This document shows, in pieces, positions 34,462 to 53,796 of a stretch of DNA of 64,000 bases. The notes under the pieces are model-generated. The model was not told the DNA's origin. It did no database searches and worked only from the letters and a program-made list of their open reading frames with translations. Both the position numbers and the translations under genes were made by a program. The stretch is from Hymenobacter busanensis. GTDB taxonomy: Bacteria > Bacteroidota > Bacteroidia > Cytophagales > Hymenobacteraceae. Position 1 is the first letter of the stretch. Every line of letters begins with the position of its first letter. The stretch spans positions 62,001 to 126,000 of the forward strand of contig NZ_VTWU01000004.1 of NCBI RefSeq assembly GCF_008727865.1, in the 5' to 3' direction.

Positions 34462-37400
34462 TTAGTTTTTCACCAGTCGTTTGACCACCGTGCCCTCGGC
34501 GGCGCGCACGCGCACCGAGTACACGCCGGCCGGCAGCTGGCCCAGGTTCAGCTCCTGCTCGATGGCGCCCTGGCGGACGCGCAGCGAGAGGCGCTGCACC
34601 ACTTGCCCGATGGCATTGACCACCTCGGCCGGCACGGGGCCCTGCTCCCGCAGGCCAGCCACCACCAGCGTGGCGTGGCCGGTGGCCGTGGGGTTGGGGT
34701 AGAGGTTGGCCGTGGCTTGCAGCGCGGCGGACGTGGTGGCCGTTACGCGCGGCTGGAACCACAGGTAGAAGCGCTGCCGTACCGAGTCGGGGTGCGACAC
34801 GAACTGGTAGACCGAATCGACGGCTAGGTTCTGCCGACGGCCGAGCAACCGGTCTTCCAGCGTTACCTGGGTGCCGGCGGGCAGGTTCAGCTGCGAGGTC
34901 AGCACCAGCGTGTGCTGGCCGGGCTGGCTCACGCGCACCGCCAGCGGCACCACGCCGGCCGTAGCCAGGTCGGGCAGGCCGTTGATGGACAACGCGCTGG
35001 TACCGGCCACGCTCCACAGCGACGGACGACCGTTGCCGTTGAGCTGCACCTTGTAGGCATCGAAACGGGGCTGGTAGCCCTGGCCGGCGCCTTGTTCAAA
35101 GTACAGCACGGCTTCGTCGGCCTGGCCCTGGGCATTGCGGGCTTCGAGGCGCAGCTCGGGCACCGCGGAGGTGCTGCGGGCGGGGCGCTCGAAGGCCGGG
35201 CTCAGGTAGCTGGTGTGGCGGGCCAAGTTGCCGAAGCTGAGCGTGGTGGTGGGCGCGGTGGAGCGCACGAAGAAGCCCTGCATGGCGGCAATGTCCTTGC
35301 TGCCGCCGTTCTGGCCGTGGCCGTTCACGTAGCTGCGGTAGGCGCCGGTGTAGCGGCCCGAGGGCACAAACACGTACATGGCATCGTCGGCTCCGGCCGG
35401 CAACATGCCGTTGGCCGGGTTGCGCACCACGTCCCAGTCGATGGGAGCAGGGTAGGGGTTGCCTACCAGGTTCCAGCCCGACCCGCCCTGCACGCCGCGG
35501 CTCAGGGTGTAGCTCACCGCGCCGTTTTGCAGCACGCCGCTGATATCAACGGTCGTCGTCGGGTCGGTCATGGCCGAGTAGCCGCGGCCGGGAATCAGGT
35601 TGTCCGAAGCCGTGGGCACCATCCAGCCCTGGTCGAAGAAATTGGCCGAAGAAGACAGGCGCGTTTCGTCGTATTGGAACAGGGTGGGGAACGGCGACAC
35701 CGTGTTGCCCTGGGTGTTGTAGGCCGGGTTCAGCTCGAAGACCGGCAGGTCGTCGGCAAACTCGCTGACCGTGGCTGAGCCCAGCTGCATCGGCGAGGAG
35801 TAGTGGCGGTAGCCGGTGGTGGCTACGCCCGTAATGAACCGCTCCATCGTGCTGCGGCCCGTCACCACGCCGCCGCCCACGGGGTTGACCACCATGGCGG
35901 TGCCCGCGGCGTTGGAGTGCAGGGTCAGGAAGCCAGCCGAGGCCAAGTTGCCCGAGGTCAGCGTCAGCATGTGGGTTACGCCGCAGGCGCTGCCCAGCGT
36001 TACGCCCGCCGGGTTCTGAATCAGCAGGTCGTAGAAGCGGATGGGCGTGGTGGTGCTGCCGCTCAGCGTCTGCGCCGCGGTGCCCACGCAGTACCAGGGG
36101 TAGCTGCCCACGTTCACCAGACCGCCGTTCGTGAGGTTGCCGTAGAGGTACACCGGACCGTTGCAGGTCAGGCCCACGGTGTTCTGCACGTTCAGGCCGT
36201 AGAAGCGGATCTGCGCGGTGCCGCCGATGGTCTGCGCCAGGGTGCCGGTGAAGTACACCGTCCAGGTGGCCGGGTTGAAAGGGCCGTTGCAGAGCCAGTT
36301 GCCGGTCACGTAGATGTCGCCGCCCAGCACGCAGCCCACGGCGTTAGCCCAGGTGACGTGGTGGAAGGTGGTCTTGGCGGTCGAGCCGGTGGTGGTAATG
36401 GTTTGCTGGGCCGCGCCGTTGAAGGTCACCAGGTAGCCGTTGCCCGAGAAGAGGCCCGAGTTCAGCCAGTAGCCGCCCACCACGATGTCGCGGAGCAGCT
36501 GCACGTTCACGGCGTTGGTGATTTGCAGGTTGTAGAACGTGCTCAGCGCCGTACCGCCGATGGTTTGCAGCGCCGTGCCGCTGAAGAGCACCAGCTGCCC
36601 GCCGTGCAGGAAACTGGCGTTGTTCACCCAGTTGCCCGTCACGCCGATGGCGTCGAGCAGGGTCACGCCGGCCGCGTTGTCGAAGGTGACATCGTGGAAG
36701 CGGGTGTTGCCCGAGGTGCAGGTAATCGTCTGCGCCGTGGTGCCCACGAAGCGGGTTTTCTTGCCGCAGCCGCAGAAGATGCCCGTATTCACGAAGTTGC
36801 CGGTCAGGTCCACGTCGTAGTCCAGACTCACGCCCACCAGGTTGCCCAGCGTCAGGTGGTGGAACACCGTCAGGGCCGTGCCGCCGATAATCTGGTTGAC
36901 GGTACCGGCGAAGGTCACCACGTAGCCGTTGGCCAGGAAGGCGCCGTTGGTGGTCCAGTCGCCCAGCACCGTAATGGCGCGGTTGATGCGCACGTTGGCG
37001 CCCGTGCCGATGGTTACGTGGTGGAACTGCGTCAGCGCCGAGCCGGCAATGGTTTGCAGCGCCGAGCCTACGAAGTACACCCCGTAGCCGCCCGCCACGA
37101 AACCGCCGTCGTTTACCCAGCTACCGGTCAGGTACAGGTGCGCGAGCAGCGTCACCGAAGCCGGGTTCTGGAAGCGGATGTTGTAGAAGCGGGTATCGGC
37201 CGAGGCGCTGATGGTCTGGGCCGCCGTGCCGTTGAAGTACACCAGGTGGGTGCCGGCCAGGAACGTGCCCAGGCCCGACCAGTTGCCCAGCACCGTAACC
37301 GGCTGCAGCAAGCTCACCGATACCAGGTTGCCCACGCTCACGTGGTGGAACACCGTGTTGACGAGGCCGCCGATGGTCTGCGCCACCGTGCCGTTGAAGA

Positions 37401-40400
37401 ACACCGTGTAGCCGCCGTGCACGAAGCCGCCGTTGTTCAGCCAGTTGCCGAGCACGTACACGTTCTGCTGCAGGGTCACCGACACCAGGTTGTTCCAGGT
37501 CACGTGCCAGAAGTTGTAGCTGCCCGAGCCGCCGATGACCTGCGCCACCGAGCCGCCGAACACGCAGGTGTAGCCCGTGTACACGCCGCCCACCAGGTTG
37601 TAGCCGTAGAAGGTGCCGTTGTTCACGAACGAGCCCAGCCAGCTTACGTTCTGCAGGATGCGCACCTCCGTGCCGCTCAGGATGTTCCAGCCGTAGAACG
37701 AGAGGCTGGTGTAGCCGCCCACCGTCTGCACGTAGCCACCCAGGCCGTTGAAGTACACCGTGTAGGTGCTCGGCGCGAAGCTGCCCGAATACAGGTAGTA
37801 GTTGCCCGCCACGTAGATGTTCGAGGCCAGGCTCACGCCCGCCGCGTTATCCACGTAGAAGTGCCAGAAGTAAGTCGTGGCGTTGGTAGTAATGACCTGG
37901 GCCGCCGTGCCGCCGAAGCGCACGAAGTGGCCCGTGGGCACCCCGCTGGTCAGGTAGTAGCCGTAGAACACGCCGGTATTCACGAAGCCGCCCAGCACGT
38001 AGATGTTCTGGTACAGCGTCACCGACACCGGGTTCTGGAAGGTCACGTCGTAGAAGTTCGTGACCTGCGTGCCGCCGATAATCTGCGCCGCCGTGCCGTT
38101 GAACACCACCGTGTAATTACCGGCCGCGAACTGCCCGTTGTTGATCCAGTTGCCGAGCACGTAGATGTTCGACCCCAGGCTGACGCCCACCGTGTTGTTG
38201 ATGGTCACGTGGTAGAAGGTCGTCTGCGTCGAGCCGCCGATGGTCTGGGCCGCCGTGCCGTTGAAGGCCACCGACTGCACGCCCACCACGAACGAGCCGT
38301 TGTTGACAAACGCCCCGCCCAGCCCGATGCCGGTATTCAGCGTCACGCCGCCCGCCGTGTTCAGGATGGTCAGCCCGCCGAAGTTCGTGACCTGCGTACC
38401 GCCGATAACCTGGTTGACGGTGCCGCCGAAGGTCGTCACGTAGGTGCCACCTACGAATGAGTTGCTCGTGGCCCCGTTGTTGGTCCAGTTGCCCAGCACG
38501 TAGATGTTCTGGTTGAGCGTCAGCCCGCCCAGGGTGTTCGACACCACGACCGAGTAGAAGTTCGTGACGGCCGAGCCGCCGATGAACTGCGCCACCGAGC
38601 CGTTGAAGTTCACGAAGTACGAGCCGCCGATGAAGCCGTTGCTGGTGGTGCCGTTGTTCACCCAGCTGCCCGACACGTAGATGTTGGTACCCAGGCTCAC
38701 CACCGCGTTGGCGTTAATCGTCACGCCGCCGAAGTACACCGCCGTCGAGCCGCCCACCGTCTGCGTGCCGTTGCCGGCAAACACGTACGAGCCGCCCGTC
38801 ACCCAGTTGCCGTTGCTCACCACGTTGCCGTAGATGGTAAACGTGCTGGAAACCTGGAACGAGGCGCCGTTGATGACGGTGATGTTGTTGACCACCGCGC
38901 CGGTGCCCGTCACAATCGGGTAGTAGGTGCCCGTGCTGATGATGACGTTGCTCGTGGCCGTCGGTACCTGCCCGCACGACCAGTTGCGCCCGTCAAACCA
39001 GTTGGTGTTGTAGCCGCCCGTCCAGGTGTAGCTCACGGCTTGCACCGCCAGGTTGGTCCCGTTGTCGTTCGAGCTGCTGGTAGCCGGAGCCGAAGCATCC
39101 ACCCGAATCCGGTAGCCAGTGCCCACGGCCGCGCCGGCCGGAATCGTGGCCGAAATGATACCGCTGACGCTGGTGCCGCTCAGGCTGATCGAACCGATGC
39201 TGGTGGCTGAGGCAAACGAGCCGCTGGCGTCCGAGAGCAAAGCCGTAAACACGTTGCCGGCGCCGAATACGCCCTGGGTCGTGAACGGCACGCTCAGCGC
39301 CGAGCCGGGGCAGTACGAGCCGCTGAACTGGCCCGTCGTGACCGAGGCCACCGGCTGGCCGATGCTCACCGTGATGGTGCGCTCCACGGTGCAACCGTTC
39401 TGCGTCACGTTCAGCGTGTAGCTGCCCGCGTTGCTTTGCGTCGCGTTCTGAATCTGCGGGTTCAGCTGCAAGGAGCTGAAGCCCGGGCCGGTCCACTGCA
39501 GCGTGGCGCCGTTCGGCACGCCGGCCGAGGTCAGCTGGATGGTGCTGCCCGCCGCTACCGGCGAGTTCGACGAAGCCACAACGCTGCCCAGGTTGGTGAT
39601 GCTCCACAGACCGCTTTCGGCCGAAGTCAGCGCCGGGTTGGTGCTGACGAGGCGCACCCGGTACAGGCTGCCCGTCACGGCCGAGGCCGGCACGGTCACG
39701 CCCACTGTGCTGGTGCCCGTGCCCGTGAAGCTGCGCGTGCCGATAACCGTCGGGGCCGCAAACGAGCCGTTTTCATCCGACAGCTCGGCCGAAACCGTGC
39801 CGCCGGCCGTCAGGCCGCTGCCGTCCACCGTAAAGCTCAGGTTCAGGAAGTTGCCGGCGCAGGTCTGCCGGGCCGCGCCGGAGTTCAGCGCCAGCGTGGG
39901 GGCGCCGGGCTGCACCGTCACCTGGATGGTCTGGCTGGCCTGGCAGTTTCCCAGCACCGTTATCAGCGTGTAGGTGCCCGAGTTGGCCACCGTCGCGTTC
40001 TGAATCTGCGGGTTCTGCTGCGCGGAGCTGAAGCCTGGGCCGCTCCACTGGTACGTGGCACCGGCCACCGGCTGAGCCGTCAACAGGATAGTGCCGCCCG
40101 TGGCCACCGGCGAGTTCGAGGAAGCCATGGCCACCGGGGCCGGGTTGATGGTCAGGTTATTTCCGTTGTCGTTGATGCTGAGCACCGCTGGGCTGCTGCC
40201 CACCACCCGCACGCGGTAGCCCGCGCCGGGCGTGGTGTTCAGCGGGAAGGTCACTGGAATCGAGCCGGAGCCCTGGCCCGTAAAGCCCACCGTGCCAATG
40301 CTGACCGGCGCAGCGAAGGAGCCCGTGGCGTCCGAGAGCTGGGCCGTCAGCACGTTGCCGGCGGCGAAGTTGTTGCCCGTCACCGCGAAGCCGATGTTGC

Positions 40401-43400
40401 GGGTGCTGCCCGCGCAGAACGCGCCGCTAAACTGCGTCACGCTCAGAATCGGGTCCGTAGAGGGCTGCACCGTCACCTGCGTGGTCGAGACCGGGCTCTG
40501 GCAGCCGCCCACCGTCACGTACAGCGAGTACGTGCCCTGGTTGACGTTCTGCGTGGCGTTGGTGATAATCGGGTTTTGCTGGGTGGAGGCGAAGTTCGGG
40601 CCGAACCACTGGTACGAGGCCCCGGCCACCGGCTGGGCCATCAGCTGAATGGTGCCGCCGTACGGCACCGGCGAGTTCGACGAGGCCACCGCCACCGGCT
40701 GCTGGGTCAGGCTGAGGTTCGAGCCGTTGTCGGTCTGGCTGGTCACGTTCGGGTTCGAGCCCACTAGGCGCACCCGGTAGCCGTTGCCCGTGGGCGTACC
40801 AGCCGGGAAGGTCGAGAAAATCGAGCCCGAGCCCTGCCCCGTGAAGCCCACCGAGCCAATGGTCGTGGGGGCGGCAAACGAGCCCGTGGCGTCCGAGAGC
40901 TGGGCCGTCAGCACGTTGCCGGCGCCGAACACGTTGCCCTGCACCGCGAAGCCGATGTTCAGCGAGTTGCCGGCGCAGCCGGTGTAGCTGAACTGGCTCA
41001 TCGTCAGGATGGGCTGGGCCGAGGGCTGCACCGTTACGCGCACCGAGGCCGAGTCCTGGCAGCCGCCGCTGTTCAGCACGTACACGAAGTACCGGCCGCT
41101 CTGGCTGGGCTGGGCATTGGTCAGGTTCAGCGTCGCGCCGTTGCCCACGTAGCTGGTGCCGCCGGCCGTGTAGGCCACGTACCACTGGTAGCTGCTCTGC
41201 CCGGCCGGACCGGCCGACAGCTGAATCGTCCCGTTGTAGGGCACCGTGGTTTGCACCGCCGCAGCCGTAGCTACCGGCGTCGGGCGCACCGTCAGATTCA
41301 CGCCGTTGTCGGTGCCCGTCACGGCCGGGTTCGTGGCCACCACGCGGATGCGGTAGCCCGAGCCGGCCGGGGTGCGGAAGGCAATGCTGTCGGTCAGTAC
41401 GCCGCCGCTGGCCGAAATCGAGCCGCCGCTGCCGTACAGGCGGCTGGTCGGGCTGAATACCCCGTTGGCGTCCGACAGCTGGAACTTAAACTGGTTGCCG
41501 GCCAGGTAGGCCGTGGTGTTCGTGGTGAACGGCACCGAAATAAAGGTGGTCGAGCAGAACGAAGCGGGCGAAACCGTGCCGGTGGCAATGGTGGGCGGGT
41601 AGGCGTAGCTGGCCGCCGAGCAGGCCGTGCCGCCCGGCGTGGTCACGCAGATTTGGCCCGTGGTACCGCCGGCCGGGGCCGTCACCGTAATCTGGGTGCC
41701 GGAATTGACCACGAAGCCCGGGGCCGCGGTGCCGTTGAAGGTCACCGCGGTGGCGCCCGTCAGGTTGGTGCCCGTAATGACCACGCTGGTGCCCGGCGCC
41801 CCGCCCGCGGGCGTAAAGCTGGTAATGGTGGGCCCGGCGCAGTTGAAGTAGTAGCTGCCCACGCCCGACACGACCACGTAGTTGGGCGCGGTGCTCAGCA
41901 CCAGGCGCAGCACGCGGCCGTTGGCCGGCGTGGCCAGGGTGCGGGCAATGCTGGTGGTGGTGCCCGCCACCAGGCTGGCCGAGTAGGTATCCACGGTCGT
42001 GAAGCTGCCGCCGATGCTGGCGCCCACCTGAATCTGCACCGTGTGGTTGCCGCTGGAGCCCGGCGTGAGCTTGTAGCGCACTTCGCTGATGGTCTGCGTC
42101 GTGCCCATATCGGCCTGCAGCAGGCTGCCGTTGTAGCCGTAGAACGAGTTGCTGGTGTTGGGCGAAGCCGGGTCCGCGTTGAAGGCGGTTTCGGCCAGGC
42201 CGTTGGTGCTGCCGCCGTAGTTGTAGTTGACGGCCGGCAGGACAGCCGCGAAGTTGGCGGAGGAGGCGCAGCCGTTTTTCAGGAAGCTACGCGAAGTCAC
42301 CAGGCTCCACTTGCCGTTGGCGTCGCGGGTCCGCACGAAAAAGCGGTGCGCGCCGTCCGCCAGGGCCGAGGCGTCGGCCATAAAGCCAAAACCGGCCAGG
42401 TCCGGCGCCGGCGTGGCCACCGGTACGTCGGTTGCGCTGCCAAAGCCGGGGTCGGTGTCGAAGTAGTACTCAATCTTGGTGATGTTGGGCGCGGCGGCCG
42501 TCAGCGGCTCGTAGTAGAAGGGCCGCTCCGTGGTCAGGCTCCACTTGCCATTGGCGTCTTTGGAGCGGACGCTGATGGTGTGGAAGCCCGTGCTCAGGCT
42601 GCTCACGGGGATGGAAATAGCCACGCCCGCCACGTCCAGACCGGCCGTGATGGGCACATCGGTAGCGCTGCCGAAGCCGGGGTCGGCATCGAGGAAATAC
42701 TCCACCTTGGTCACGTTCACCGCCGTGGCGGCCGCCGGCTCGTAGTAGAACGAGCGGCGCGTGGTCAGGCTCCACTGCCCGTTGGCGTCCTTGGTGCGCA
42801 CGCCCAGCGCGTGGAAGCCCGCGCTCAGCCCGCTCACGTCGTAGCTGAAGGCCAGCCCGCTCACGTCGGCGGCCGGCGCGGCTACCGGAATGTCGGTGGC
42901 GCTGCCGAAGCCGGGGTCGGTGTCAATAAAGTATTCGGCCTTGCTGATGTTGGCCGCCGTGCTGGCCGCCGGTTCGTAGTAAAAGGAGCGGCGCGTGGTG
43001 AGGCTCCACTGCCCGTTGGCATCCTTGGCGCGTATGCCAACCACGTGAAAGCCGGCGCTTAGGCTGCCAACATTCAGCGAAAACGCCACGCCCGCTACGT
43101 CGGGGCTGGCCGTTACGGGCACGTCGGTGGCCAGGCCGAAGCCGGGGTCGGTATCGACGAAGTATTCCACCTTGGTCACGTTGCTGGCGGTGGCGGCCAG
43201 TGGCTCGTAGTAAAACGTGCGGCGCGTGGCCAGGCTCCAGGCGCCGTTGGCGTCTTTGGTGCGCACGGCGAGGCGGTGGAAGCCGGCACTCAGGCCGCTC
43301 ACGTCGGTCGAGAACGAGAGGCCGGCCACGTCGGCGGCCGGGGAGCTGATGGTGATGGGCGTTGCGGCGCCATACCCGGGGTCAGGACTGTCCAGGTAGT

Positions 43401-43536
43401 ACTCCGCTTGGCTGATGGTCTGCGCCGAGGCCGGCAATACGCTGCCCGGAATACTGCTTGCCAGCAGCATCAGCAGCGCCAACGGGCGCAGCAGCCATTC
43501 GCCCCACCCCGAGCGGTTTCGGGAAGGGTGTCGCAT
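34462..43536 (-). CDS. Giant repeat-rich surface protein with T9SS sorting domain
   Basis: 3024 residues. Signal peptide to about residue 39 (PGSVLPASAQ). Residues about 40-430 hold five copies of a 75-85-residue unit (VEYFVDTDPGFG ... SAGFHVVGIRAKDANGQWSLTTRRSFYYEP). A discoidin-like segment (430-570) and an IPT/TIG domain (ITSFTPAGGAPGTSVVITGTNL) follow. About 650-1510 is a series of Ig/PKD-like repeats (FCAGSTRNIGFAV, AGNVLTAQLSDATGSF). About 1550-2530 is an array of around 17 units like NIYVLGNWINNGQF...VVFNGTAAQIIGG. The C-terminus has LYPNPTATGHATL and ends GVYSVRVRAAEGTVVKRLVKN, a T9SS type A sorting domain. It is secreted and likely surface-attached, for adhesion or matrix. The beta-helix gene 6 nt upstream is in the same operon. 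Confidence 0.93.
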   Translation of the reverse strand: MRHPSRNRSGWGEWLLRPLALLMLLASSIPGSVLPASAQTISQAEYYLDSPDPGYGAATPITISSPAADVAGLSFSTDVSGLSAGFHRLAVRTKDANGAWSLATRRTFYYEPLAATASNVTKVEYFVDTDPGFGLATDVPVTASPDVAGVAFSLNVGSLSAGFHVVGIRAKDANGQWSLTTRRSFYYEPAASTAANISKAEYFIDTDPGFGSATDIPVAAPAADVSGLAFSYDVSGLSAGFHALGVRTKDANGQWSLTTRRSFYYEPAAATAVNVTKVEYFLDADPGFGSATDVPITAGLDVAGVAISIPVSSLSTGFHTISVRSKDANGKWSLTTERPFYYEPLTAAAPNITKIEYYFDTDPGFGSATDVPVATPAPDLAGFGFMADASALADGAHRFFVRTRDANGKWSLVTSRSFLKNGCASSANFAAVLPAVNYNYGGSTNGLAETAFNADPASPNTSNSFYGYNGSLLQADMGTTQTISEVRYKLTPGSSGNHTVQIQVGASIGGSFTTVDTYSASLVAGTTTSIARTLATPANGRVLRLVLSTAPNYVVVSGVGSYYFNCAGPTITSFTPAGGAPGTSVVITGTNLTGATAVTFNGTAAPGFVVNSGTQITVTAPAGGTTGQICVTTPGGTACSAASYAYPPTIATGTVSPASFCSTTFISVPFTTNTTAYLAGNQFKFQLSDANGVFSPTSRLYGSGGSISASGGVLTDSIAFRTPAGSGYRIRVVATNPAVTGTDNGVNLTVRPTPVATAAAVQTTVPYNGTIQLSAGPAGQSSYQWYVAYTAGGTSYVGNGATLNLTNAQPSQSGRYFVYVLNSGGCQDSASVRVTVQPSAQPILTMSQFSYTGCAGNSLNIGFAVQGNVFGAGNVLTAQLSDATGSFAAPTTIGSVGFTGQGSGSIFSTFPAGTPTGNGYRVRLVGSNPNVTSQTDNGSNLSLTQQPVAVASSNSPVPYGGTIQLMAQPVAGASYQWFGPNFASTQQNPIITNATQNVNQGTYSLYVTVGGCQSPVSTTQVTVQPSTDPILSVTQFSGAFCAGSTRNIGFAVTGNNFAAGNVLTAQLSDATGSFAAPVSIGTVGFTGQGSGSIPVTFPLNTTPGAGYRVRVVGSSPAVLSINDNGNNLTINPAPVAMASSNSPVATGGTILLTAQPVAGATYQWSGPGFSSAQQNPQIQNATVANSGTYTLITVLGNCQASQTIQVTVQPGAPTLALNSGAARQTCAGNFLNLSFTVDGSGLTAGGTVSAELSDENGSFAAPTVIGTRSFTGTGTSTVGVTVPASAVTGSLYRVRLVSTNPALTSAESGLWSITNLGSVVASSNSPVAAGSTIQLTSAGVPNGATLQWTGPGFSSLQLNPQIQNATQSNAGSYTLNVTQNGCTVERTITVSIGQPVASVTTGQFSGSYCPGSALSVPFTTQGVFGAGNVFTALLSDASGSFASATSIGSISLSGTSVSGIISATIPAGAAVGTGYRIRVDASAPATSSSNDNGTNLAVQAVSYTWTGGYNTNWFDGRNWSCGQVPTATSNVIISTGTYYPIVTGTGAVVNNITVINGASFQVSSTFTIYGNVVSNGNWVTGGSYVFAGNGTQTVGGSTAVYFGGVTINANAVVSLGTNIYVSGSWVNNGTTSNGFIGGSYFVNFNGSVAQFIGGSAVTNFYSVVVSNTLGGLTLNQNIYVLGNWTNNGATSNSFVGGTYVTTFGGTVNQVIGGTQVTNFGGLTILNTAGGVTLNTGIGLGGAFVNNGSFVVGVQSVAFNGTAAQTIGGSTQTTFYHVTINNTVGVSLGSNIYVLGNWINNGQFAAGNYTVVFNGTAAQIIGGTQVTNFYDVTFQNPVSVTLYQNIYVLGGFVNTGVFYGYYLTSGVPTGHFVRFGGTAAQVITTNATTYFWHFYVDNAAGVSLASNIYVAGNYYLYSGSFAPSTYTVYFNGLGGYVQTVGGYTSLSFYGWNILSGTEVRILQNVSWLGSFVNNGTFYGYNLVGGVYTGYTCVFGGSVAQVIGGSGSYNFWHVTWNNLVSVTLQQNVYVLGNWLNNGGFVHGGYTVFFNGTVAQTIGGLVNTVFHHVSVGNLVSVSLLQPVTVLGNWSGLGTFLAGTHLVYFNGTAAQTISASADTRFYNIRFQNPASVTLLAHLYLTGSWVNDGGFVAGGYGVYFVGSALQTIAGSALTQFHHVTIGTGANVRINRAITVLGDWTTNGAFLANGYVVTFAGTVNQIIGGTALTVFHHLTLGNLVGVSLDYDVDLTGNFVNTGIFCGCGKKTRFVGTTAQTITCTSGNTRFHDVTFDNAAGVTLLDAIGVTGNWVNNASFLHGGQLVLFSGTALQTIGGTALSTFYNLQITNAVNVQLLRDIVVGGYWLNSGLFSGNGYLVTFNGAAQQTITTTGSTAKTTFHHVTWANAVGCVLGGDIYVTGNWLCNGPFNPATWTVYFTGTLAQTIGGTAQIRFYGLNVQNTVGLTCNGPVYLYGNLTNGGLVNVGSYPWYCVGTAAQTLSGSTTTPIRFYDLLIQNPAGVTLGSACGVTHMLTLTSGNLASAGFLTLHSNAAGTAMVVNPVGGGVVTGRSTMERFITGVATTGYRHYSSPMQLGSATVSEFADDLPVFELNPAYNTQGNTVSPFPTLFQYDETRLSSSANFFDQGWMVPTASDNLIPGRGYSAMTDPTTTVDISGVLQNGAVSYTLSRGVQGGSGWNLVGNPYPAPIDWDVVRNPANGMLPAGADDAMYVFVPSGRYTGAYRSYVNGHGQNGGSKDIAAMQGFFVRSTAPTTTLSFGNLARHTSYLSPAFERPARSTSAVPELRLEARNAQGQADEAVLYFEQGAGQGYQPRFDAYKVQLNGNGRPSLWSVAGTSALSINGLPDLATAGVVPLAVRVSQPGQHTLVLTSQLNLPAGTQVTLEDRLLGRRQNLAVDSVYQFVSHPDSVRQRFYLWFQPRVTATTSAALQATANLYPNPTATGHATLVVAGLREQGPVPAEVVNAIGQVVQRLSLRVRQGAIEQELNLGQLPAGVYSVRVRAAEGTVVKRLVKN
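35960..38870 (-). repeat. Tandem repeat array inside the giant surface-protein gene
   Basis: About 17 degenerate coding repeats, most 40-60 codons long, each with a core W-[VI]-N-N-G, then VxFNGTxAQxIGG, then FxxVTxxN. Boundaries are approximate. Such arrays can change length by recombination and give a parallel beta-solenoid-like fibre; that is inference from pattern. Confidence 0.7.
42270..43420 (-). repeat. Five N-terminal DTDPGFG repeats in the giant surface-protein gene
   Basis: Five coding repeats of about 225-250 bp, each with [YF]-[FVL]-D-[TSA]-D-P-G-[FY]-G and KDANGxWSL followed by FYYEP in the first four. Copies are highly alike at the protein level, indicating duplication within the gene. 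Confidence 0.75.
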
Positions 43537-45197: not shown

Positions 45198-46931
45198 ATG
45201 ACGTCTTTTATTCCCGGGTTGCCGCAACTCCCCAAAGCCCCCACCGGCATCGAGGGCTTGGATGAAATTACCGAAGGCGGCTTCCCGCTGGGCCGCCCCA
45301 CGCTGGTGTGCGGCAGCGCCGGCTGCGGCAAAACCCTTCTGGCCATCGAATTTCTGGTGCGTGGCATCCAGGAATTCCACGAGCCGGGCGTGCTGATGAC
45401 CTTCGAGGAAACCGCCGACGAGCTGGCCGCCAACGTGGCTTCGCTGGGCTTCGACCTGCCCGCCCTGCAGGCGCAAAAGCTGCTCAAGCTCGACCACGTG
45501 CACGTCGACCGCTCCGAAATCGAGGAAACCGGCGAATACGACCTCGAAGGCCTGTTTATCCGCCTCGGCCACGCCATCGACTCCATTGGGGCCAAGCGCG
45601 TGGTACTCGACACCATCGAAGCGCTGTTTTCGGGCTTCCCGAACGAAGGCGTGCTGCGCTCCGAAATCCGGCGCCTGTTCCGTTGGCTCAAAGACAAAGG
45701 CGTCACGACCATCATCACGGCCGAGCGCGGCGAAGGCTCGCTCACCCGGCAGGGACTGGAAGAGTACGTGTCGGATTGCGTGATTTTGCTCGACAACCGC
45801 GTCATCGACCAGATTACCACCCGCCGCCTGCGCATTGTGAAGTACCGCGGCAGCACCCACGGCACCAACGAATACCCGTACCTGATCAGCGAGGAGGGCA
45901 TTTCGGTGCTACCCGTTACGTCGTTGCAGCTCCGGCACGACGTGTCCGACGAGGTGGTTTCGTCGGGTATTCCGGCCCTCGACGACATGTTTGGCCGCCG
46001 CGGCTGGTACGTGGGCAGCAGCATCCTGATTACGGGCACGGCCGGCACGGCCAAAACCACGCTGGCCACCGCCTTCGCCCACGAAATGTGCCGCCAGAAC
46101 AAGCGCTGTTTGTTTTTTGCCTTTGAGGAGTCGCCGCAGCAGCTGGTGCGCAACATGCGCTCGGTGGGCATGGACCTGCAGCCCTGCGTCGACAGTGGGC
46201 TGCTGCACATTGAGGCGGCCCGGCCCACGCTCAATGGCCTGGAGCGGCACTTGGTCACCATTCACCGGCTGGTCAAGCAGCTCAAGCCCGAAGCCGTGGT
46301 TATCGACCCCATCAGCAACTTGGTGTCGGTGGGCAACATTGCCGAGGTGCGCAGCATGCTCACCCGCCTCATCGATTACCTGAAAGTGAACGGCATCACG
46401 GCGCTGTTCACATCGTTGGTCAGCGGGCGCAACATTCAGCAGGAAATGACCGAGGAAGGCGTTTCGTCGCTCGTCGATACCTGGATAAGCGTGCGCGACC
46501 TGGAAGGCGTGGGCGAGCGAAACCGCGGCCTGAGCATTCTGAAGTCCCGCGGCATGGCGCATTCCAACCAGGTGCGCGAGTTTCTCGTCACCGAACAGGG
46601 CATCCGTCTGCTCGACGTAGTAATTGGGCCGTCGGGCATTGTAACCGGCGCCAGCCGCCTGACGCAGCAAATACAAGAGCAGGCCCTGGCCGCCGCGCAT
46701 CAGCAAGAGCTGGACCGCCGCGACCGGGAGCTGGAGCGCAAACGCCGCGTGCTGGAAGCCACCATTGCCAACCTGCGCACCGAATTTGAGTCGGTGGAAG
46801 ACGAGCTGCGCAAGATCAACGACGAAGAGCTGACGCGCGAACAGGCGCTGGCCCTGGGGCGGCAGCAGGTAGCCCGCGCTTTCCCCACCGAAAAGAACCC
46901 CAACCCGGCCGGCGACGGCAACCACGCGTAG
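45198..46931 (+). CDS. kaiC: KaiC-like dual-ATPase
   Basis: 577-residue protein with two RecA-like domains. CI has Walker [10 protein letters not shown], the paired glutamates TFEET and [13 protein letters not shown] starts near residue 248 ([12 protein letters not shown]), with Walker [10 protein letters not shown] and glutamates FAFEES. The place of the cyanobacterial phosphosites (Ser431/Thr432) reads T418-EEGV-S423-S424, so both sites are Ser and the Thr426 equivalent is kept. The last 70 residues are a coiled coil ([16 protein letters not shown]) in place of a typical KaiA-binding tail. It is first in an operon with two kaiB genes, a kinase and a receiver. No kaiA is present. Rhythmic function is unproven; stress or timing signalling is possible. 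The ATG at 45198 fits the family start. Confidence 0.93.
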
Positions 46932-46938
46932 TACCGAG

Positions 46939-47274
46939 ATGAACAACGTAGCGGCGGCAGACGCCCCCCTTGCCATGGATGAGGAAACCTGGGAGTTGCG
47001 CTTGTATGTAGCCGGCCAAACCGCGAAGTCGGTGACGGCGCTGGCCAACCTGAAACGATACTGCGAGCGGTACCTGAAAGGCCGGTACCAGCTGGAGGTG
47101 ATTGACTTGCTGCAGCACCCGCACTTGGCCGAGGGCGACCAGGTGCTGGCCATTCCCACGCTGGTGCGCAAAGTGCCCAAGCCCATTCGCAAAATCATCG
47201 GCGACCTGTCGAACCAGGAAAAGGTATTGGTGGGCCTCGACATCCGCACCGTCGAGAGCCCCGACCACCGCTAG
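46939..47274 (+). CDS. kaiB: KaiB-like protein, canonical copy
   Basis: 111 residues. After a 17-residue lead the KaiB fold is plain: [83 protein letters not shown]. It retains the motifs of cyanobacterial KaiB including PTL..P.[10 protein letters not shown]. KaiB binds the CI ring of KaiC in the fold-switched state. It starts 7 nt after kaiC and ends 1 nt before the second kaiB. Confidence 0.93.
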
Positions 47275-47275
47275 C

Positions 47276-47593
47276 ATGGAGGCCGAAGAAAGCCCGGGCA
47301 AACCGCCCGAATACGTGCTTCACCTCTACATTACCGGCGTTACGCCCAACTCTACCCGGGCCGTGCGCAACATCAAAGACATCTGCGAGCAGTACCTGCC
47401 GGGACGCTACGAGCTGCTGATTGTGGACATTTACCAGCAGCCCGAGAAAGCCCAGGACGAAGACCTCATTGGTATGCCCGTACTCATCAAAAGAAGCCCG
47501 GGGCTGGTACGCCGGTTGGTAGGCGACTTGTCGGACCGCCAGCGGGTGCTGGCCGCGCTGGGCCTGCCGCCCGAGGCCACTACTTCCCGCTAA
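47276..47593 (+). CDS. kaiB: KaiB-like protein, divergent copy
   Basis: 105 residues: YVLHLYITGVTPNSTRAVRNIKDICEQYLPGRYELLIVDIYQQPEKAQDEDLIGMPVLIKRSPGLVRRLVGDLSDRQRVLAALGL. The fold is the same as the first copy but with MPVLIKRSPG in place of the [11 protein letters not shown] region, so it is a distinct paralogue, closer to the divergent KaiB types found outside Cyanobacteria. One base separates it from each neighbour, so translation is coupled. It may bind KaiC with different timing or serve as link to the kinase. Confidence 0.9.
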   Translation: MEAEESPGKPPEYVLHLYITGVTPNSTRAVRNIKDICEQYLPGRYELLIVDIYQQPEKAQDEDLIGMPVLIKRSPGLVRRLVGDLSDRQRVLAALGLPPEATTSR

Positions 47594-47594
47594 C

Positions 47595-49307
47595 GTGAGC
47601 CAGGCTGCTGCTGACAGCGCCGACGAGCTGGCGCGCGAAAACGACGAGCTGCGCCTGCGCCTGCAGGAAGCCGAAGAGTTGATTCATGCCATTCGGACCG
47701 GCGCCGTAGACGCGCTGGCCGTGCAGGGGCCCGAAGGACCGCGCATTTTTACGCTCGAAGGCGCCGACCAGGGCTACCGCACCCTCATCGAGCAGATGAA
47801 CGAGGGCGCGCTGCTGCTGGGCCCCGACGGCACGCTGCTGTATTGCAACGCGGCGCTGGCGGGGTTGCTGGGCGTGGCGCTGCAGGATATCATCGGCGGC
47901 AATTTCCAGGATTTTGTGCCCAAGGGCTTCCGGCGGTACTGGGCCACCCTGATGGGCAACGGCTGGAAGGGCAAAAGCAAGGGCGAAATGCCGCTGCGCA
48001 CCAAGGCCGGCACGTTGCTGCCGTTTTCGCTGTCGATGAACGTGCTGGCTTTCCACGAAACGCCGGTGCTGGCCGTCATTGTTACCAACTTGTCGGCGCA
48101 GCGCGAAATCCGCCACATTCAGGCCCTGGTGGACGAGCAAAACGTGCTGATTACCCGCAAAAACGAGGAGTTGCGCGCGCAGGAGTCGGCCCGGCAAATG
48201 ATGGAGCAAGCCGCCGCCGAAGCCACACGCGTGCTGGAAGGCATTCCCCAGATTGCCTGGACGGCCAGCCCCTCAGGCCGCCTCACCTACCTCAACCGCC
48301 GCTGGTTCGACTACACCGGCAGCACCAGCGAGGTGCCCCTCCACGAGCAGTGGCAGGAGCACCTGCACCCCGACGACCGGGCTGCTGTGAGCTTGCGCTG
48401 GAAAAAGTGCCGGCGTAGCGGGCAAGCCTTCGATATTGAATACCGATTTCGGAACCACGCCGGCGACTACCGCTGGATGCTGGGCCGCGGCCTGCCCTCC
48501 CGCAACGAGCAGGGCGAAATTGTGCAGTGGGTGGGCACTAACACCGACATTCACGAACACAAGCTGGCCCTGGCCCGCATCGACCAGGCCCAGCGCCAAC
48601 TGCAGGACAACAACCAGCAGCTGACGCGCGCCAACGTCGACCTCGACAACTTCATCTACACCGCTTCGCACGACCTGAAAGCGCCCATCAGCAACATCGA
48701 AGGGCTCTTGCAGGCTTTGCTGGTGGAGTTGCCGCCGGCTGGCCGCTCGGGCGAGGTGCAGCCCATCATCGATATGATGCAGGGCTCGGTGGAGCGTTTC
48801 AAGCGCACCATCGAGCACCTGACGGAGGTGACCAAGCTGCAGAAGGAAAACGACCAGCCCGCGTCCATCATCGAGCTGAAGACGGTGGTGGAGGAAGTGC
48901 TGCTGGACCTGGAGCCGCTGATTGCCGAAACCGAGGCTCGGCTGGATGTGAACGTGGCTACGTGCCCGGCGCTGTCGTTTGCCGAGAAGAACATGCGGTC
49001 GGTGGTGTACAACTTGCTCAGCAACGCGCTCAAATACCGCCACCCCGAGCGCGTGCCCCATGTGCAGCTGCGCTGCCACGAAGCCGACGAGTACCTGGTG
49101 CTGGAAGTGCAGGACAACGGCCTGGGGCTCGACGTGCAGCACGAGCACAAGCTGTTTGCCATGTTTCAGCGCTTCCATGCCCACGTCGAGGGCTCGGGCA
49201 TTGGCCTATATATGGTGAAGAAAATCGTGGAAAACGCCGGCGGCCGCATTGAGGTGCAGAGCGTGCTGGGCGAGGGAACGACGTTTTCCGTCTTTTTTCG
49301 GCGGTAG
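47595..49307 (+). CDS. PAS sensor histidine kinase of the Kai operon
   Basis: 570-residue soluble kinase. It has an N-terminal coiled coil (LARENDELRLRLQEAEEL), a PAS domain at about 70-175, a second PAS/PAC at about 215-330 (QIAWTASPSGRLTYLNRRWFDYTG ... GTNTDIHEHK), then HisKA with His359 in TASHDLKAPISN and HATPase (NLLSNALKYRHP, DNGLGLD, GSGIGLYMVKKI). It starts with GTG one base after the second kaiB stop. Position suggests it reads or transmits the Kai state in the role SasA has in Cyanobacteria, but it lacks the KaiB-like domain of SasA; the separate second KaiB could compensate. Confidence 0.9.
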   Translation: MSQAAADSADELARENDELRLRLQEAEELIHAIRTGAVDALAVQGPEGPRIFTLEGADQGYRTLIEQMNEGALLLGPDGTLLYCNAALAGLLGVALQDIIGGNFQDFVPKGFRRYWATLMGNGWKGKSKGEMPLRTKAGTLLPFSLSMNVLAFHETPVLAVIVTNLSAQREIRHIQALVDEQNVLITRKNEELRAQESARQMMEQAAAEATRVLEGIPQIAWTASPSGRLTYLNRRWFDYTGSTSEVPLHEQWQEHLHPDDRAAVSLRWKKCRRSGQAFDIEYRFRNHAGDYRWMLGRGLPSRNEQGEIVQWVGTNTDIHEHKLALARIDQAQRQLQDNNQQLTRANVDLDNFIYTASHDLKAPISNIEGLLQALLVELPPAGRSGEVQPIIDMMQGSVERFKRTIEHLTEVTKLQKENDQPASIIELKTVVEEVLLDLEPLIAETEARLDVNVATCPALSFAEKNMRSVVYNLLSNALKYRHPERVPHVQLRCHEADEYLVLEVQDNGLGLDVQHEHKLFAMFQRFHAHVEGSGIGLYMVKKIVENAGGRIEVQSVLGEGTTFSVFFRR

Positions 49308-49369
49308 TTCGTAGTGGGTACGCCACCCCAGACAAGGCCGCACTTGCCCCTGGGAGTAAGTTTTTCCCC

Positions 49370-49792
49370 ATGCACAAGCTATCCTGCGTCCTGCTCGTCG
49401 ACGACGACTCGACCACCAACTACCTCAACCAGCTGCTGCTCACGCGCCTCAACATTGCCGAAAAGCTGCTGGTGGCGCTCAACGGTCAGGAGGCCCTGGA
49501 CCTGCTGGAAGTGCAGTGCCAAGGCGCCAGCGCCGATTGCCCGATGCTGGTGTTGCTCGACGTGAAAATGCCCGTAATGGACGGATTCGCGTTTCTGGAG
49601 GCCTTTGCAAACCTGCCGCTGGCCCGCCGCGAAGCCATTGTCATCGTTATGCTCACCACGTCGTTGCATCCCCTCGATGTGGAGCGTATTCAGCGGCTGA
49701 ATATTGCCGGCTTTCTGAACAAGCCGCTGACCCGTGAAAAAATCGACCTTATTCTGCAAGAGCATTTCGGGCATCGGCTGCCGGCTGAATAG
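49370..49792 (+). CDS. Stand-alone receiver-domain response regulator
   Basis: 140 residues, receiver only: VLLVDDDSTTNYL, phospho-acceptor Asp64 in LLDVKMP, Thr in MLTTS, Lys in FLNKPLT. No output domain. It lies 62 nt after the kinase and is probably its direct target, passing the signal by protein contact. Confidence 0.92.
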   Translation: MHKLSCVLLVDDDSTTNYLNQLLLTRLNIAEKLLVALNGQEALDLLEVQCQGASADCPMLVLLDVKMPVMDGFAFLEAFANLPLARREAIVIVMLTTSLHPLDVERIQRLNIAGFLNKPLTREKIDLILQEHFGHRLPAE

Positions 49793-51152: not shown

Positions 51153-52394
51153 ATGTTGAACCCCGAAGACATTTTAAGATACGAGCTCCTGCAAACCGCA
51201 GTAGAAGCGGCCGGCATCGGCACCTGGGATTTGAATCCCCTTACCGGCCAACTGCTGTGGTCGGAGCGCTGCAAGGAATTGTTTGGCTTGCCCGCCACCG
51301 CCGAGGTCGACTACGAGCTGTTTCTGCAAGGCCTGCACCCCGACGACCGCGCCCGTACCGATGAGGTGGTGCGCCAGGCGCTGGACCCGACCGGTTCGGG
51401 GGCCTACGACATCGAGTACCGCACCGTGGGCCTGCAAGACCAGCAGTTGCGCTGGGTGCGGGCCACCGGCAAAGCGTTTTTCGATGCCGAGCGTACCCAG
51501 GCCGTGCGGTTTGTGGGTACCGTGAGCGACATTACAACGGCCAAAACCCGCGAGCTGGAAGCCGTACGCCTGGCGGCCATCGTCGAGCAGTCGAGCGACT
51601 TTGTGGGGCTGGCCACTGCCGATGGAAAAGTGCTGTACCTGAACCCTGCCGCGGCCGATCTGGTCGGGCTGGCGGGCGAAGAGCAAATTCGGCAAACCAC
51701 CATCGGCGAGTTTTTCATGCCCGAGGCCCTGCCCGCCATTCAGCAACAGGTGCTGCCCGCCGTGATGCAGCAGGGCACATGGACGGGCGAGCTGCCCATG
51801 CGCCGTTTCGACACCGGGCAGTCGGTGCCGGTGCGCTACCACGTGTTTCGCCTCGACGACCCCGTGACGGGGCAGGTGACGCTGGCCACCGCCAGCCAGG
51901 ACCTCACCCAGCACAAAAAGGCCGAAGAGCGGTTCAGCTTCTTGGCCGAAATGATTCCGCAGCTGGTGTGGACCACCGACCCCGAAGGCTTCCACGACTA
52001 CTTCAACCAGCGCTGGATCGACTACACCGGCTACACCGTGGCCGACAGCCAGGGCACCGAAATGTGGAACAACCTGCTGCACCCCGACGACCGGGAGCGG
52101 GCCCGCATCCGCTGGACGCACTCCCTGCAAACCGGCGAATTCTACGAAATCGAGTACCGATTCCTGTCCAAGCAAGGCACCTACCGCTGGTTCCTGGGCC
52201 AGGCCCTGCCGCTGCGCAACGCCGAAGGCCAGATTGTGAAGTGGTTTGGCACCTGCACCGATATTGAACACCAGAAACAGCTGCAGGAGCGCCTCGAGCA
52301 AGCCTACGCCGACCTGGAGCTGAAAGTAACGTTCCGCACCCTGGAACTGGAGCGGCAAGTGCAGGAGCTTCGTAAGCAGCTCGACAACGCCTGA
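51153..52394 (+). CDS. Multi-PAS sensory protein without kinase domain
   Basis: 413 residues made of three PAS domains: about 10-130 (AAGIGTWDLNPLTGQLLWSERCKELFGL ... GTVSDITTAK), 140-255 (SSDFVGLATADGKVLYLNPAA) and 265-385 (IPQLVWTTDPEGFHDYFNQRWIDYTGYT ... GTCTDIEHQK), then a coiled coil (LEQAYADLELKVTFRTLELERQVQELRKQL). Such a tail usually leads into a kinase, but the protein stops and a terminator follows, so it has no output domain. It may dimerise with kinases elsewhere. The third PAS resembles the second PAS of the Kai-operon kinase. Confidence 0.85.
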   Translation: MLNPEDILRYELLQTAVEAAGIGTWDLNPLTGQLLWSERCKELFGLPATAEVDYELFLQGLHPDDRARTDEVVRQALDPTGSGAYDIEYRTVGLQDQQLRWVRATGKAFFDAERTQAVRFVGTVSDITTAKTRELEAVRLAAIVEQSSDFVGLATADGKVLYLNPAAADLVGLAGEEQIRQTTIGEFFMPEALPAIQQQVLPAVMQQGTWTGELPMRRFDTGQSVPVRYHVFRLDDPVTGQVTLATASQDLTQHKKAEERFSFLAEMIPQLVWTTDPEGFHDYFNQRWIDYTGYTVADSQGTEMWNNLLHPDDRERARIRWTHSLQTGEFYEIEYRFLSKQGTYRWFLGQALPLRNAEGQIVKWFGTCTDIEHQKQLQERLEQAYADLELKVTFRTLELERQVQELRKQLDNA

Positions 52395-52872: not shown

Positions 52873-53796
52873 TCAGGAAACGGCCGGGGCATTCTGGGCG
52901 GCTCGCACCAGCATGCCCACTTCTTCCAATATCAGGCAGGCGCGGTGGGCACTGGCTTCCTTGTCTTTGATTTCGAGCATAATATCGGCGTCGAGGCCGC
53001 GCAGGTCTTCGAGGAAGCGCCGAAACAGGGCTTCTTCCATTGTGGCCACGTGCTTGCCTTTTCGTTCGCCGGGCGCCTGCGAGCTGTAGTCAATCATGAG
53101 CGGGCCATCCTGGGTGGGGTGCCAGGTAGCGGCGGCCAGGCGCAGGGCCATGGGCATCGGTTCGCCGTTGTTGAGGCACTCGTGGTGGAAGTTGTCGAAG
53201 AGTACGGGCACACCCACGGCATCGTGCAGACGCAGGCAATCCTGCAGGCTGTAGAGCCGGTCGTCGTTTTCGACTACCAAGCGGGCTTTCACGGCCTCGG
53301 GTAGCGTTTTGTAGGTGGCAATCCAGCGGGTGAGGGCGGCTTCCCGGTCGCCGTAGAGGCCGCCGGCGTGAATCTGCAGCTTGGCCGTCGAGTCGAGGCC
53401 CATCAGATCGAGCATCGAGCCCTGGTACACCAACTCGTCGATGCTGCGCTGCACAATGCCGGCGTCGGGCGAGTTGAGCACCACAAACTGGTCGGGGTGA
53501 AACGACACGCGCAGGCCGTGGGCCTTGACGTAGTCGCCGATGGCCCGGAATTCGGCCGCGAAGTGCGTTTGCCAGGGAAAAGTGTTGATGGGGTGCGAAC
53601 CAAACGGCACAATACCCGAGCCCATGCGGAAAAAGCGCAGCTCGTGCTGCACGTTGTATTCCAGAATGCGCTGCAAGCAGGCCAGGTTTTTGGCCACGGT
53701 CTGCTCCACGCGCTCATCGGAGTAGGAGGCCAGTCGGAAGGTGCTGGCCGTGGAGCAGTCGAGCGACTCGTTGACGCAAGGATAACCGATTCTCAT
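52873..53796 (-). CDS. uvsE: UV damage repair endonuclease UvsE (UvdE family)
   Basis: 307-residue metal-dependent endonuclease that nicks 5' of UV photoproducts and other lesions for alternative excision repair. The TIM-barrel motifs are clear: MRIGYPCVNESLDCSTASTFRL, FRMGSGIVPFGSHP, RVSFHPDQFVVLNSP, KLQIHAGGLYGDRE, RLVVENDDRLYS, PVLFDNFHHECLN and MLEIKDKE. They carry the His, Glu and Asp ligands of the Mn site. Length is typical. The first gene of a two-gene unit. Confidence 0.95.
   Translation of the reverse strand: MRIGYPCVNESLDCSTASTFRLASYSDERVEQTVAKNLACLQRILEYNVQHELRFFRMGSGIVPFGSHPINTFPWQTHFAAEFRAIGDYVKAHGLRVSFHPDQFVVLNSPDAGIVQRSIDELVYQGSMLDLMGLDSTAKLQIHAGGLYGDREAALTRWIATYKTLPEAVKARLVVENDDRLYSLQDCLRLHDAVGVPVLFDNFHHECLNNGEPMPMALRLAAATWHPTQDGPLMIDYSSQAPGERKGKHVATMEEALFRRFLEDLRGLDADIMLEIKDKEASAHRACLILEEVGMLVRAAQNAPAVS

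What the first reader, a model, noticed from the sequence alone, without database searches (positions are those of the whole stretch)
45198..49792. Clock-like operon kaiC-kaiB-kaiB-histidine kinase-receiver without kaiA
KaiC keeps both ATPase sites, with Ser423-Ser424 where Cyanobacteria have Ser-Thr and the Thr426 equivalent conserved. Two different KaiB proteins are translationally coupled to a PAS kinase, and a receiver follows. This is a plausible timing or stress-signalling circuit in a non-photosynthetic Bacteroidota.
Basis: partly seen in the sequence, partly recalled or inferred. Interest (0 to 1): 0.65.

Follow-up and report, generated by a model that had tools for sequence, protein, structure and literature searches.

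The report
Clock-gene operon with a kai-linked kinase domain
A bacterium, probably a Hymenobacter, carries a KaiA-less relative of the cyanobacterial clock (KaiC plus two different KaiB proteins) next to a signalling kinase whose front end is an apparently undescribed domain that, in the genomes examined, occurs only beside kai genes, which makes it a candidate for the missing link between such timers and the cell.

Summary
The operon is real: kaiC 45198-46931, kaiB1 46939-47274, kaiB2 47276-47593, PAS histidine kinase 47595-49307, receiver 49370-49792; no KaiA match in 8 genus genomes. KaiC is KaiC2-type, closest in the PDB to Rhodobacter sphaeroides KaiC, coil included; Ser-Ser is the norm for that group, so this part is already known (PMC5520375, PMC10076222). 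Two things look new. (1) The KaiBs are two old paralogs in fixed order: first versus last position needs one change on a 135-row tree; 78 of 80 named loci have exactly two. (2) The kinase begins with a ~60-residue helix-hairpin module without a Pfam family or convincing PDB relative. In three phylum samples plus the genus it occurs in 45 genomes, all with KaiB, always in the kai cluster, and in 0 of 635 without KaiB. Behind it sit HisKA, HisKA_2, HisKA_3 or HWE kinases, once a sigma-54 activator. Best reading: an hourglass-like KaiBC2 timer or energy sensor passes its state through this module to a swappable effector, here a kinase and perhaps its receiver. Binding and timing are inferred, not shown.

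The parts
45198..46931 (+). kaiC, KaiC2 type (577 aa): CI and CII ATPase domains, Ser423-Ser424, C-terminal tail of 93 residues that aligns with the R. sphaeroides coil
46939..47274 (+). kaiB1 (111 aa), conserved first-position KaiB; same side of the tree as the single R. sphaeroides KaiB
47276..47593 (+). kaiB2 (105 aa from the ATG at 47276), diverged last-position KaiB paralog; modelled in the thioredoxin-like fold-switched topology
47595..49307 (+). sensor histidine kinase (570 aa): module, two PAS domains, HisKA with H-box SHDLKAP, HATPase with N and G boxes
47628..47804 (+). kai-linked N-terminal module (kinase residues 12-70): long helix plus beta hairpin leading into PAS1; no Pfam family, no convincing PDB relative
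49370..49792 (+). stand-alone receiver domain (140 aa), phospho-acceptor motif LDVKMP at 63-68, no output domain found by Pfam

Best explanation
This is a KaiA-independent KaiC2-type KaiBC timer or energy-state sensor coupled to a two-component pathway. By analogy with R. sphaeroides (shown there by others, inferred here), KaiC2 autophosphorylates on the two serines when ATP/ADP is high, and fold-switched KaiB on the CI ring drives hydrolysis and dephosphorylation. The state of the KaiC2-KaiB assembly is read by the kinase through its N-terminal helix-hairpin module, which sits in front of a PAS domain and sets kinase or phosphatase activity; the phosphate goes to the stand-alone receiver. KaiB2 is a second, diverged KaiB, perhaps held in the thioredoxin-like form, that competes with or bridges KaiB1 and the kinase, doing in trans what the KaiB-like domain of SasA does in cis. 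Shown here: gene content, conserved order, one old KaiB split, linkage of the module to kai clusters in every genome found to have it, and exchange of effectors behind the module. Inferred: all binding, the direction of signalling, the receiver as target, and timing.
For: Best PDB match of KaiC is R. sphaeroides KaiC 8dba (607 bits, residues 11-561, coil included). Tail of 70 residues or more in 121 of 129 KaiCs. Module: Bacteroidota sample 28 of 395 genomes, all among the 39 with a KaiB match, 0 of 356 without (Fisher 2.7e-34); genus 5 of 8, all with KaiB, 0 of 3 without, next-best score 17 bits against 94-102; Planctomycetota sample 6 of 149, all among 10 with a KaiB match, 0 of 139 (1.5e-8); sample of the phylum of Methanoperedens 7 of 148, all among the 11 with KaiB over the cut-off, 0 of 137 (1.2e-9). 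38 of 38 copies outside the archaea lie 35-627 bp downstream of a KaiB on the same strand. Plasmids: 13 of 13 module records are among the 16 KaiB records. Behind the module: HisKA, HWE, HisKA_2, HisKA_3, hybrid kinases, a sigma-54 activator with Fis HTH. One first/last change on the KaiB tree. KaiB2 model resembles fold-switched KaiB and SasA-N.
Against: No interaction was measured or modelled. Operon co-inheritance alone could give the linkage, though exchanged effectors argue otherwise. KaiB genomes without the module exist: 11 of 39 in Bacteroidota, 4 of 10 in Planctomycetota, 4 of 11 in the archaeal sample, and 3 of 16 KaiB plasmids; three of these loci (L065, L075, L078) have KaiC2 with coil, so the module is not essential for KaiBC. 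Thirteen of 121 module loci with KaiC have one KaiB only, so KaiB2 is not needed for coupling. The receiver is beside the kinase in only 29 of 80 named loci. Published suggestions treat such kinases as redox or oxygen inputs (PMC5520375, PMC10931921, passages seen). Pseudomonadota were sampled only through plasmids, Cyanobacteria not at all.
Confidence: 0.6

Rival explanations
1. The kinase is an input, not an output: its PAS domains sense redox, oxygen or a metabolite and the module tunes KaiC2 or KaiB, with the receiver as a side branch.
For: PMC5520375 and PMC10931921 (passages seen) report the suggestion that the R. sphaeroides operon kinase transduces redox or oxygen signals to KaiBC; a PAS domain directly follows the module in most effectors scanned; Foldseek matches include heme, flavin and LOV PAS structures; the receiver is often missing.
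Against: One module-bearing protein is a sigma-54 activator with a Fis-type HTH and no kinase domain (L187), an output by architecture. No cofactor motif was tested.
Confidence: 0.22
2. A KaiC2 stress or energy-response module without timekeeping, as reported for Legionella: KaiBC tunes stress resistance through the kinase and there is no day-night function. This overlaps with the best explanation, which leaves timer or sensor open.
For: PMC5520375 (passage) cites stress-response involvement of Legionella KaiC2; a UvdE-type UV endonuclease gene lies about 3 kb away.
Against: Nothing in the anatomy decides; coil, serines and KaiB1 match the R. sphaeroides hourglass. Whether the host is phototrophic or meets light-dark cycles was not tested.
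Confidence: 0.3
3. The module is merely the inherited front of a kai-linked kinase family, carried along by the operon, with no contact to Kai proteins.
For: Operons move as units; there are no binding data.
Against: The module stays while the catalytic half changes among at least five types (HisKA, HisKA_2, HisKA_3, HWE, sigma-54 activator) over four lineages; it is more conserved than PAS1 (mean 0.65 against 0.49 in 50 sequences); three extra module copies in archaeal kai clusters lie near but not directly behind a KaiB.
Confidence: 0.2
4. A true self-sustained circadian oscillator.
For: Two KaiBs and both phosphosites present.
Against: No KaiA match; the closest studied system is described as an hourglass (PMC10076222 abstract).
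Confidence: 0.04

Closest known systems
R. sphaeroides (Cereibacter) KaiBC hourglass, PDB 8DBA/8FWI/8FWJ (PMC10076222, abstract and passages seen)
   Same: KaiC2 with Ser-Ser and coil (57% identity over 82% of KaiC), KaiB1-type KaiB, adjacent kinase that also bears the module
   Different: one KaiB only; HWE kinase instead of HisKA; no receiver annotated beside it
Cyanobacterial KaiABC with SasA-RpaA
   Same: KaiC and KaiB homology; kinase-to-receiver logic (SasA-RpaA recalled and from paper passages)
   Different: no KaiA match; KaiC below the TIGR02655 equivalog cut-off (352 against 546 bits); kinase without a KaiB-like domain; receiver without a DNA-binding domain
kaiC-kaiB-kinase clusters of PMC3164672 and R. 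palustris (PMC4794148), passages seen
   Same: kinase directly behind kaiC-kaiB
   Different: the specific N-terminal domain of PMC3164672 (RtaNt) was defined for kaiB-less kaiC-kinase pairs; the passages seen describe neither this module nor paired KaiB paralogs
SasA N-terminal domain (PDB 1T4Y, 6X61)
   Same: KaiB2 model matches it (Foldseek ranks 11 and 16)
   Different: KaiB2 is a separate protein and by sequence a KaiB; the SasA model PRK09303 is not among its NCBIfam hits (it is a weak one, 25 bits against 342, for KaiB1)

Membership tests
KaiC2 / R. sphaeroides-type KaiC | two RecA-like domains with catalytic glutamates | tested here: met
   EE in 129 of 129 in both domains
KaiC2 / R. 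sphaeroides-type KaiC | two serines at the phosphosite | tested here: met
   S423-S424; SS in 124 of 129
KaiC2 / R. sphaeroides-type KaiC | C-terminal extension that forms a coiled coil | tested here: inconclusive
   extension met: 93-residue tail, aligned with the R. sphaeroides coil; coiled-coil structure not modelled
KaiC2 / R. sphaeroides-type KaiC | dodecamer, ATP/ADP-driven phosphorylation hourglass | not testable with these tools
   needs purified protein
KaiB (PF07689) | profile match over the cut-off | tested here: met
   99 and 71 bits against 27
KaiB (PF07689) | metamorphic fold and CI binding | tested here: inconclusive
   KaiB2 modelled in the fold-switched topology; KaiB1 not modelled; binding not testable
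KaiB equivalog of cyanobacterial type (TIGR02654) | score over the curated cut-off of 145 bits | tested here: not met
   100 and 78 bits
Cyanobacterial KaiABC clock | KaiA | tested here: not met
   PF07688, 0 of 8 genomes at E<=1
Cyanobacterial KaiABC clock | KaiC over the TIGR02655 cut-off | tested here: not met
   352 against 546 bits
SasA-type clock kinase | KaiB-like N-terminal domain on the kinase | tested here: not met
   no PF07689 match in the kinase; model of residues 2-201 shows helix, hairpin, PAS
SasA-type clock kinase | direct binding to the KaiC CI ring | not testable with these tools
   needs a binding assay

The most novel reading that the evidence does not exclude
The kinase front end is a so far unnamed KaiBC-coupling domain, the general adaptor of KaiA-less KaiBC2 timers across bacteria and archaea, joined in evolution to at least four phosphoacceptor types of kinase and to a sigma-54 transcription activator; KaiB2 is a stand-alone SasA-N-like partner in the same cassette.
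Probability: 0.55. Interest if true: 0.78.

Novelty: new variant of a known kind. Interest (0 to 1): 0.6.

Why it matters
How KaiBC timers without SasA, CikA and RpaA talk to the cell is open. A 60-residue module that, in the genomes sampled, occurs only beside kai genes in bacteria and archaea gives a concrete surface to test and a sequence tag for finding coupled kinases and transcription factors. It applies at once to R. sphaeroides, whose KaiBC structures and kinetics are published and whose neighbouring kinase carries the module. The fixed pair of KaiB paralogs adds a second testable part that single-KaiB models lack.

Tried and rejected
Light sensing by PAS1: the fold search returned heme, flavin and LOV PAS structures alike and I tested no cofactor motif; not claimed. 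Module docking only on the KaiC coil: three loci (L058, L063, L081) keep a module of 69-71 bits although the KaiC tail is 6-12 residues, so exclusive coil docking is disfavoured; all three are of one family code (f7), so possibly one event. Repeated recent kaiB duplication: disfavoured by one first/last change on the tree. Caveats: 85 columns, quick search, 76 of 132 inner branches open, near-duplicates dropped first (243 rows to 135), root not inferred; with single-copy, orphan, middle and cyanobacterial rows counted the label 'last' needs 3 changes and 'first' 6, and the last-position KaiBs of L076, L080 and L167 stand apart from the other last ones, nearer the cyanobacterial and first-position side. 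Module as a known domain: Pfam hits are scattered and weak (best E 0.0029, LysR_substrate, 4 of 15 members); PDB hits are weak (best E 0.0045, a Rho kinase coiled coil). KaiB-kinase fusion: none recognised; the 538-aa open frame in G511 was not shown to be one (L185).

Named and unnamed sets overlap: equal contig lengths suggest that L047 is L094 and L068 is L152. The 125 effectors were themselves picked by similarity to the window's kinase (113 of 117 KaiC loci, plus 12 chosen by hand), which favours the module; kinases near KaiC in L186 and L191 and beside orphan KaiBs (L066, L067, L085, L170, L195) were not in it. The genome-wide searches do not have that bias. Of the 125, the miss is L074 (KaiC with Ser-Thr); L193 is weak (30 bits), L148 partial (43 bits). 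In one search the 4 further genus genomes are counted with the phylum samples; the archaeal copies are not (of 10, 7 directly downstream of a KaiB and 3 within about 2.5 kb, read). For the archaeal sample 'without KaiB' means no match over the cut-off; 27 of those 137 have weaker PF07689 matches.

Absence in print rests, listings of an open-licence library; I read passages of eight papers and none in full. The Legionella kai paper is not held.
Full report
What is there. kaiB1-kaiB2 and kaiB2-kinase are one base apart. Pfam and NCBIfam give KaiC, KaiB, KaiB, PAS/HisKA/HATPase and a receiver. The kinase has H, N and G boxes and the receiver its acidic pocket, phospho-acceptor Asp, Thr and Lys motifs (motif names recalled). 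The genome holds one two-domain KaiC and two KaiBs; KaiA gives no match in 8 genus genomes. The nearest named KaiC loci are Hymenobacter (84% identity to H. cavernae), so the host is probably a Hymenobacter; the window itself is unnamed.

KaiC is of a known type. Its best PDB match is R. sphaeroides KaiC, aligned across both domains and the C-terminal coil; the Ser-Ser pair aligns with the serines that are Ser413-Ser414 there. Of 129 KaiCs aligned (117 loci with KaiC, window included, plus 12 added), 124 have SS, 129 have EE in each domain and 121 have a tail of 70 residues or more. PMC5520375 (passages seen) already states that KaiC2 has two serines and that a group of Bacteroidetes encodes only KaiB2/KaiC2-like proteins; PMC10076222 (abstract and passages seen) shows the dodecamer, the coil and an ATP/ADP-driven hourglass in R. 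sphaeroides. PMC3164672 (passages seen) already noted that kinases or GGDEF/EAL proteins follow kaiC-kaiB in almost all cases outside cyanobacteria.

Two KaiB paralogs. In 117 loci with KaiC, two KaiBs follow KaiC in 102, one in 11, none in 2, three in 1, four in 1; in the 80 named ones two in 78, three in 1, four in 1. On a tree of 135 KaiB domains the labels first and last need one change, so the pair looks like one old split kept in order across Bacteroidota, Methanoperedens, Planctomycetota and Pararhizobium. The tree has only 85 columns, many unresolved forks and no inferred root; with all other rows counted, 'last' needs 3 changes and 'first' 6, and three last-position rows (L076, L080, L167) stand apart from the rest. 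The single KaiB of R. sphaeroides falls with the first-position rows. First-position KaiBs are conserved (mean 79% identity among 78 named loci), last-position ones diverge (54%), and the two in one locus share 45%. AlphaFold2 with 45 last-position sequences gives the order strand-helix-strand-helix-strand-strand-helix (mean pLDDT 86.5); the best Foldseek matches are fold-switched KaiB (5JWR, 8FWJ), then Legionella KaiB, with SasA-N at rank 11. Without a KaiB1 control this cannot show that only KaiB2 favours that state; PMC10808063 (passages seen) shows that AlphaFold2 gives either state depending on the alignment.

The kinase module. Kinase residues 12-70 are matched in 124 of 125 effectors of kai loci in Bacteroidota, Planctomycetota, archaea and Alphaproteobacteria; that set was picked by similarity to the window's kinase and holds some duplicates, so it shows conservation, not exclusivity. 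No Pfam family or PDB sequence matches convincingly. Model of kinase residues 2-201 (50 sequences, pLDDT 89.5, lower, 57-87 by block, in the module's second half; fragment numbering): helix 2-34, hairpin 39-44 and 47-52, then a PAS domain; the 50 best matches among solved structures, as far as titled, are PAS or LOV proteins. Mean conservation is 0.65 in the module, 0.49 in PAS1 and 0.41 in the next linker.

Exclusivity in the samples. Bacteroidota: 28 of 395 genomes, all within the 39 with a KaiB match, none of 356 without. Genus: 5 of 8, the five with KaiB; at E<=10 the next score is 17 bits against 94-102. Planctomycetota: 6 of 149, all within 10 with a KaiB match. Phylum of Methanoperedens: 7 of 148, all within 11 with KaiB over the cut-off; 27 others there have weaker KaiB matches and none has the module. 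Together 45 genomes with the module, all with KaiB, and 0 of 635 without. KaiB genomes without the module: 11, 4 and 4 in the three samples. 38 of 38 non-archaeal copies lie 35-627 bp behind a KaiB on the same strand; of 10 archaeal copies 7 do and 3 lie within about 2.5 kb. Among plasmids 13 of 13 module records are KaiB records; 3 of 16 KaiB records lack it. Chromosomes of Pseudomonadota and all Cyanobacteria were not sampled.

Effectors change behind the module. HisKA in the window; HWE in R. sphaeroides, Falsirhodobacter and Rhizobium; hybrid kinases; in Planctomycetota L187 a sigma-54 activator with AAA lid and Fis HTH and no kinase domain; HisKA_2 in L214 and L215, HisKA_3 in L185. All six archaeal loci read (L211-L216) have KaiC, a first-type KaiB, a last-type KaiB, then a module protein. 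A domain kept in place while outputs are exchanged is what a coupling domain would look like.

Who binds the module? Across 129 KaiC loci: coil and module 118; coil without module 3; module without coil 3; no coil and no or weak module 5. Thirteen of the 121 module loci have one KaiB. So the module needs neither the coil nor KaiB2 in every case; the KaiC2 core or KaiB1 is the likelier partner (inference).

Mechanism, with status. KaiC2 phosphorylation and KaiB-driven reset: shown in R. sphaeroides by others, inferred here. Module reading KaiBC state: inferred from linkage. Kinase to receiver: inferred from adjacency and intact motifs, and weakened by the receiver's presence in only 29 of 80 named loci. 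KaiB2 as a separate SasA-N-like partner: inferred, weakest link. Timing in the organism: untested.

Verdict. The operon is of a known kind, a KaiC2-type KaiBC cluster with a kinase. The order-fixed KaiB pair and the kai-linked module turned up in none of the passages I read from ten searches of an open-licence library, which does not prove them unpublished. That makes the operon a new variant, with a domain worth a name if binding is shown.

Noticed in passing
L169:5974-6267 and L195:4932-5267 (Hymenobacter plasmids), L053:8184-8501, L086:7280-7585: KaiB-like genes outside a kaiC-kaiB run (no KaiC found in L053, L169, L195; in L086 on the opposite strand upstream of kaiC). L195 has a receiver gene just upstream, L169 a receiver and PAS gene about 5 kb away; three of the four group together.
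   Followed up: partly
L066:8047-8334, L067:8109-8381, L085:7846-8118: In three Bacteroidota genomes a KaiB gene sits next to kinase-like genes (on both sides in L067 and L085) with no KaiC recognised in the 16 kb read.
   Followed up: no
L164 (Planctomycetota MAG) and L148 (uncultured archaeon): Kai clusters with four and three successive KaiB genes.
   Followed up: no
L187:7636-9615: Module-bearing sigma-54 activator directly behind kaiC-kaiB-kaiB, a possible direct transcriptional output.
   Followed up: partly
window 51153-52394 (+): Triple-PAS protein without a kinase domain in its Pfam hits, 1.4 kb downstream of the operon.
   Followed up: no
window 52873-53796 (-): UvdE-type UV-damage endonuclease about 3 kb downstream of the operon.
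   Followed up: no
window 34462-43536 (-): A 3024-aa repetitive, secreted-looking protein whose end resembles a type IX secretion sorting domain (domain recalled, not searched).
   Followed up: no
window 46035-46058 (KaiC CII Walker A): GTAGTAKT, Ala replacing the Gly before Lys, as in 53 of 129 KaiCs aligned; effect on CII ATP handling unknown.
   Followed up: no
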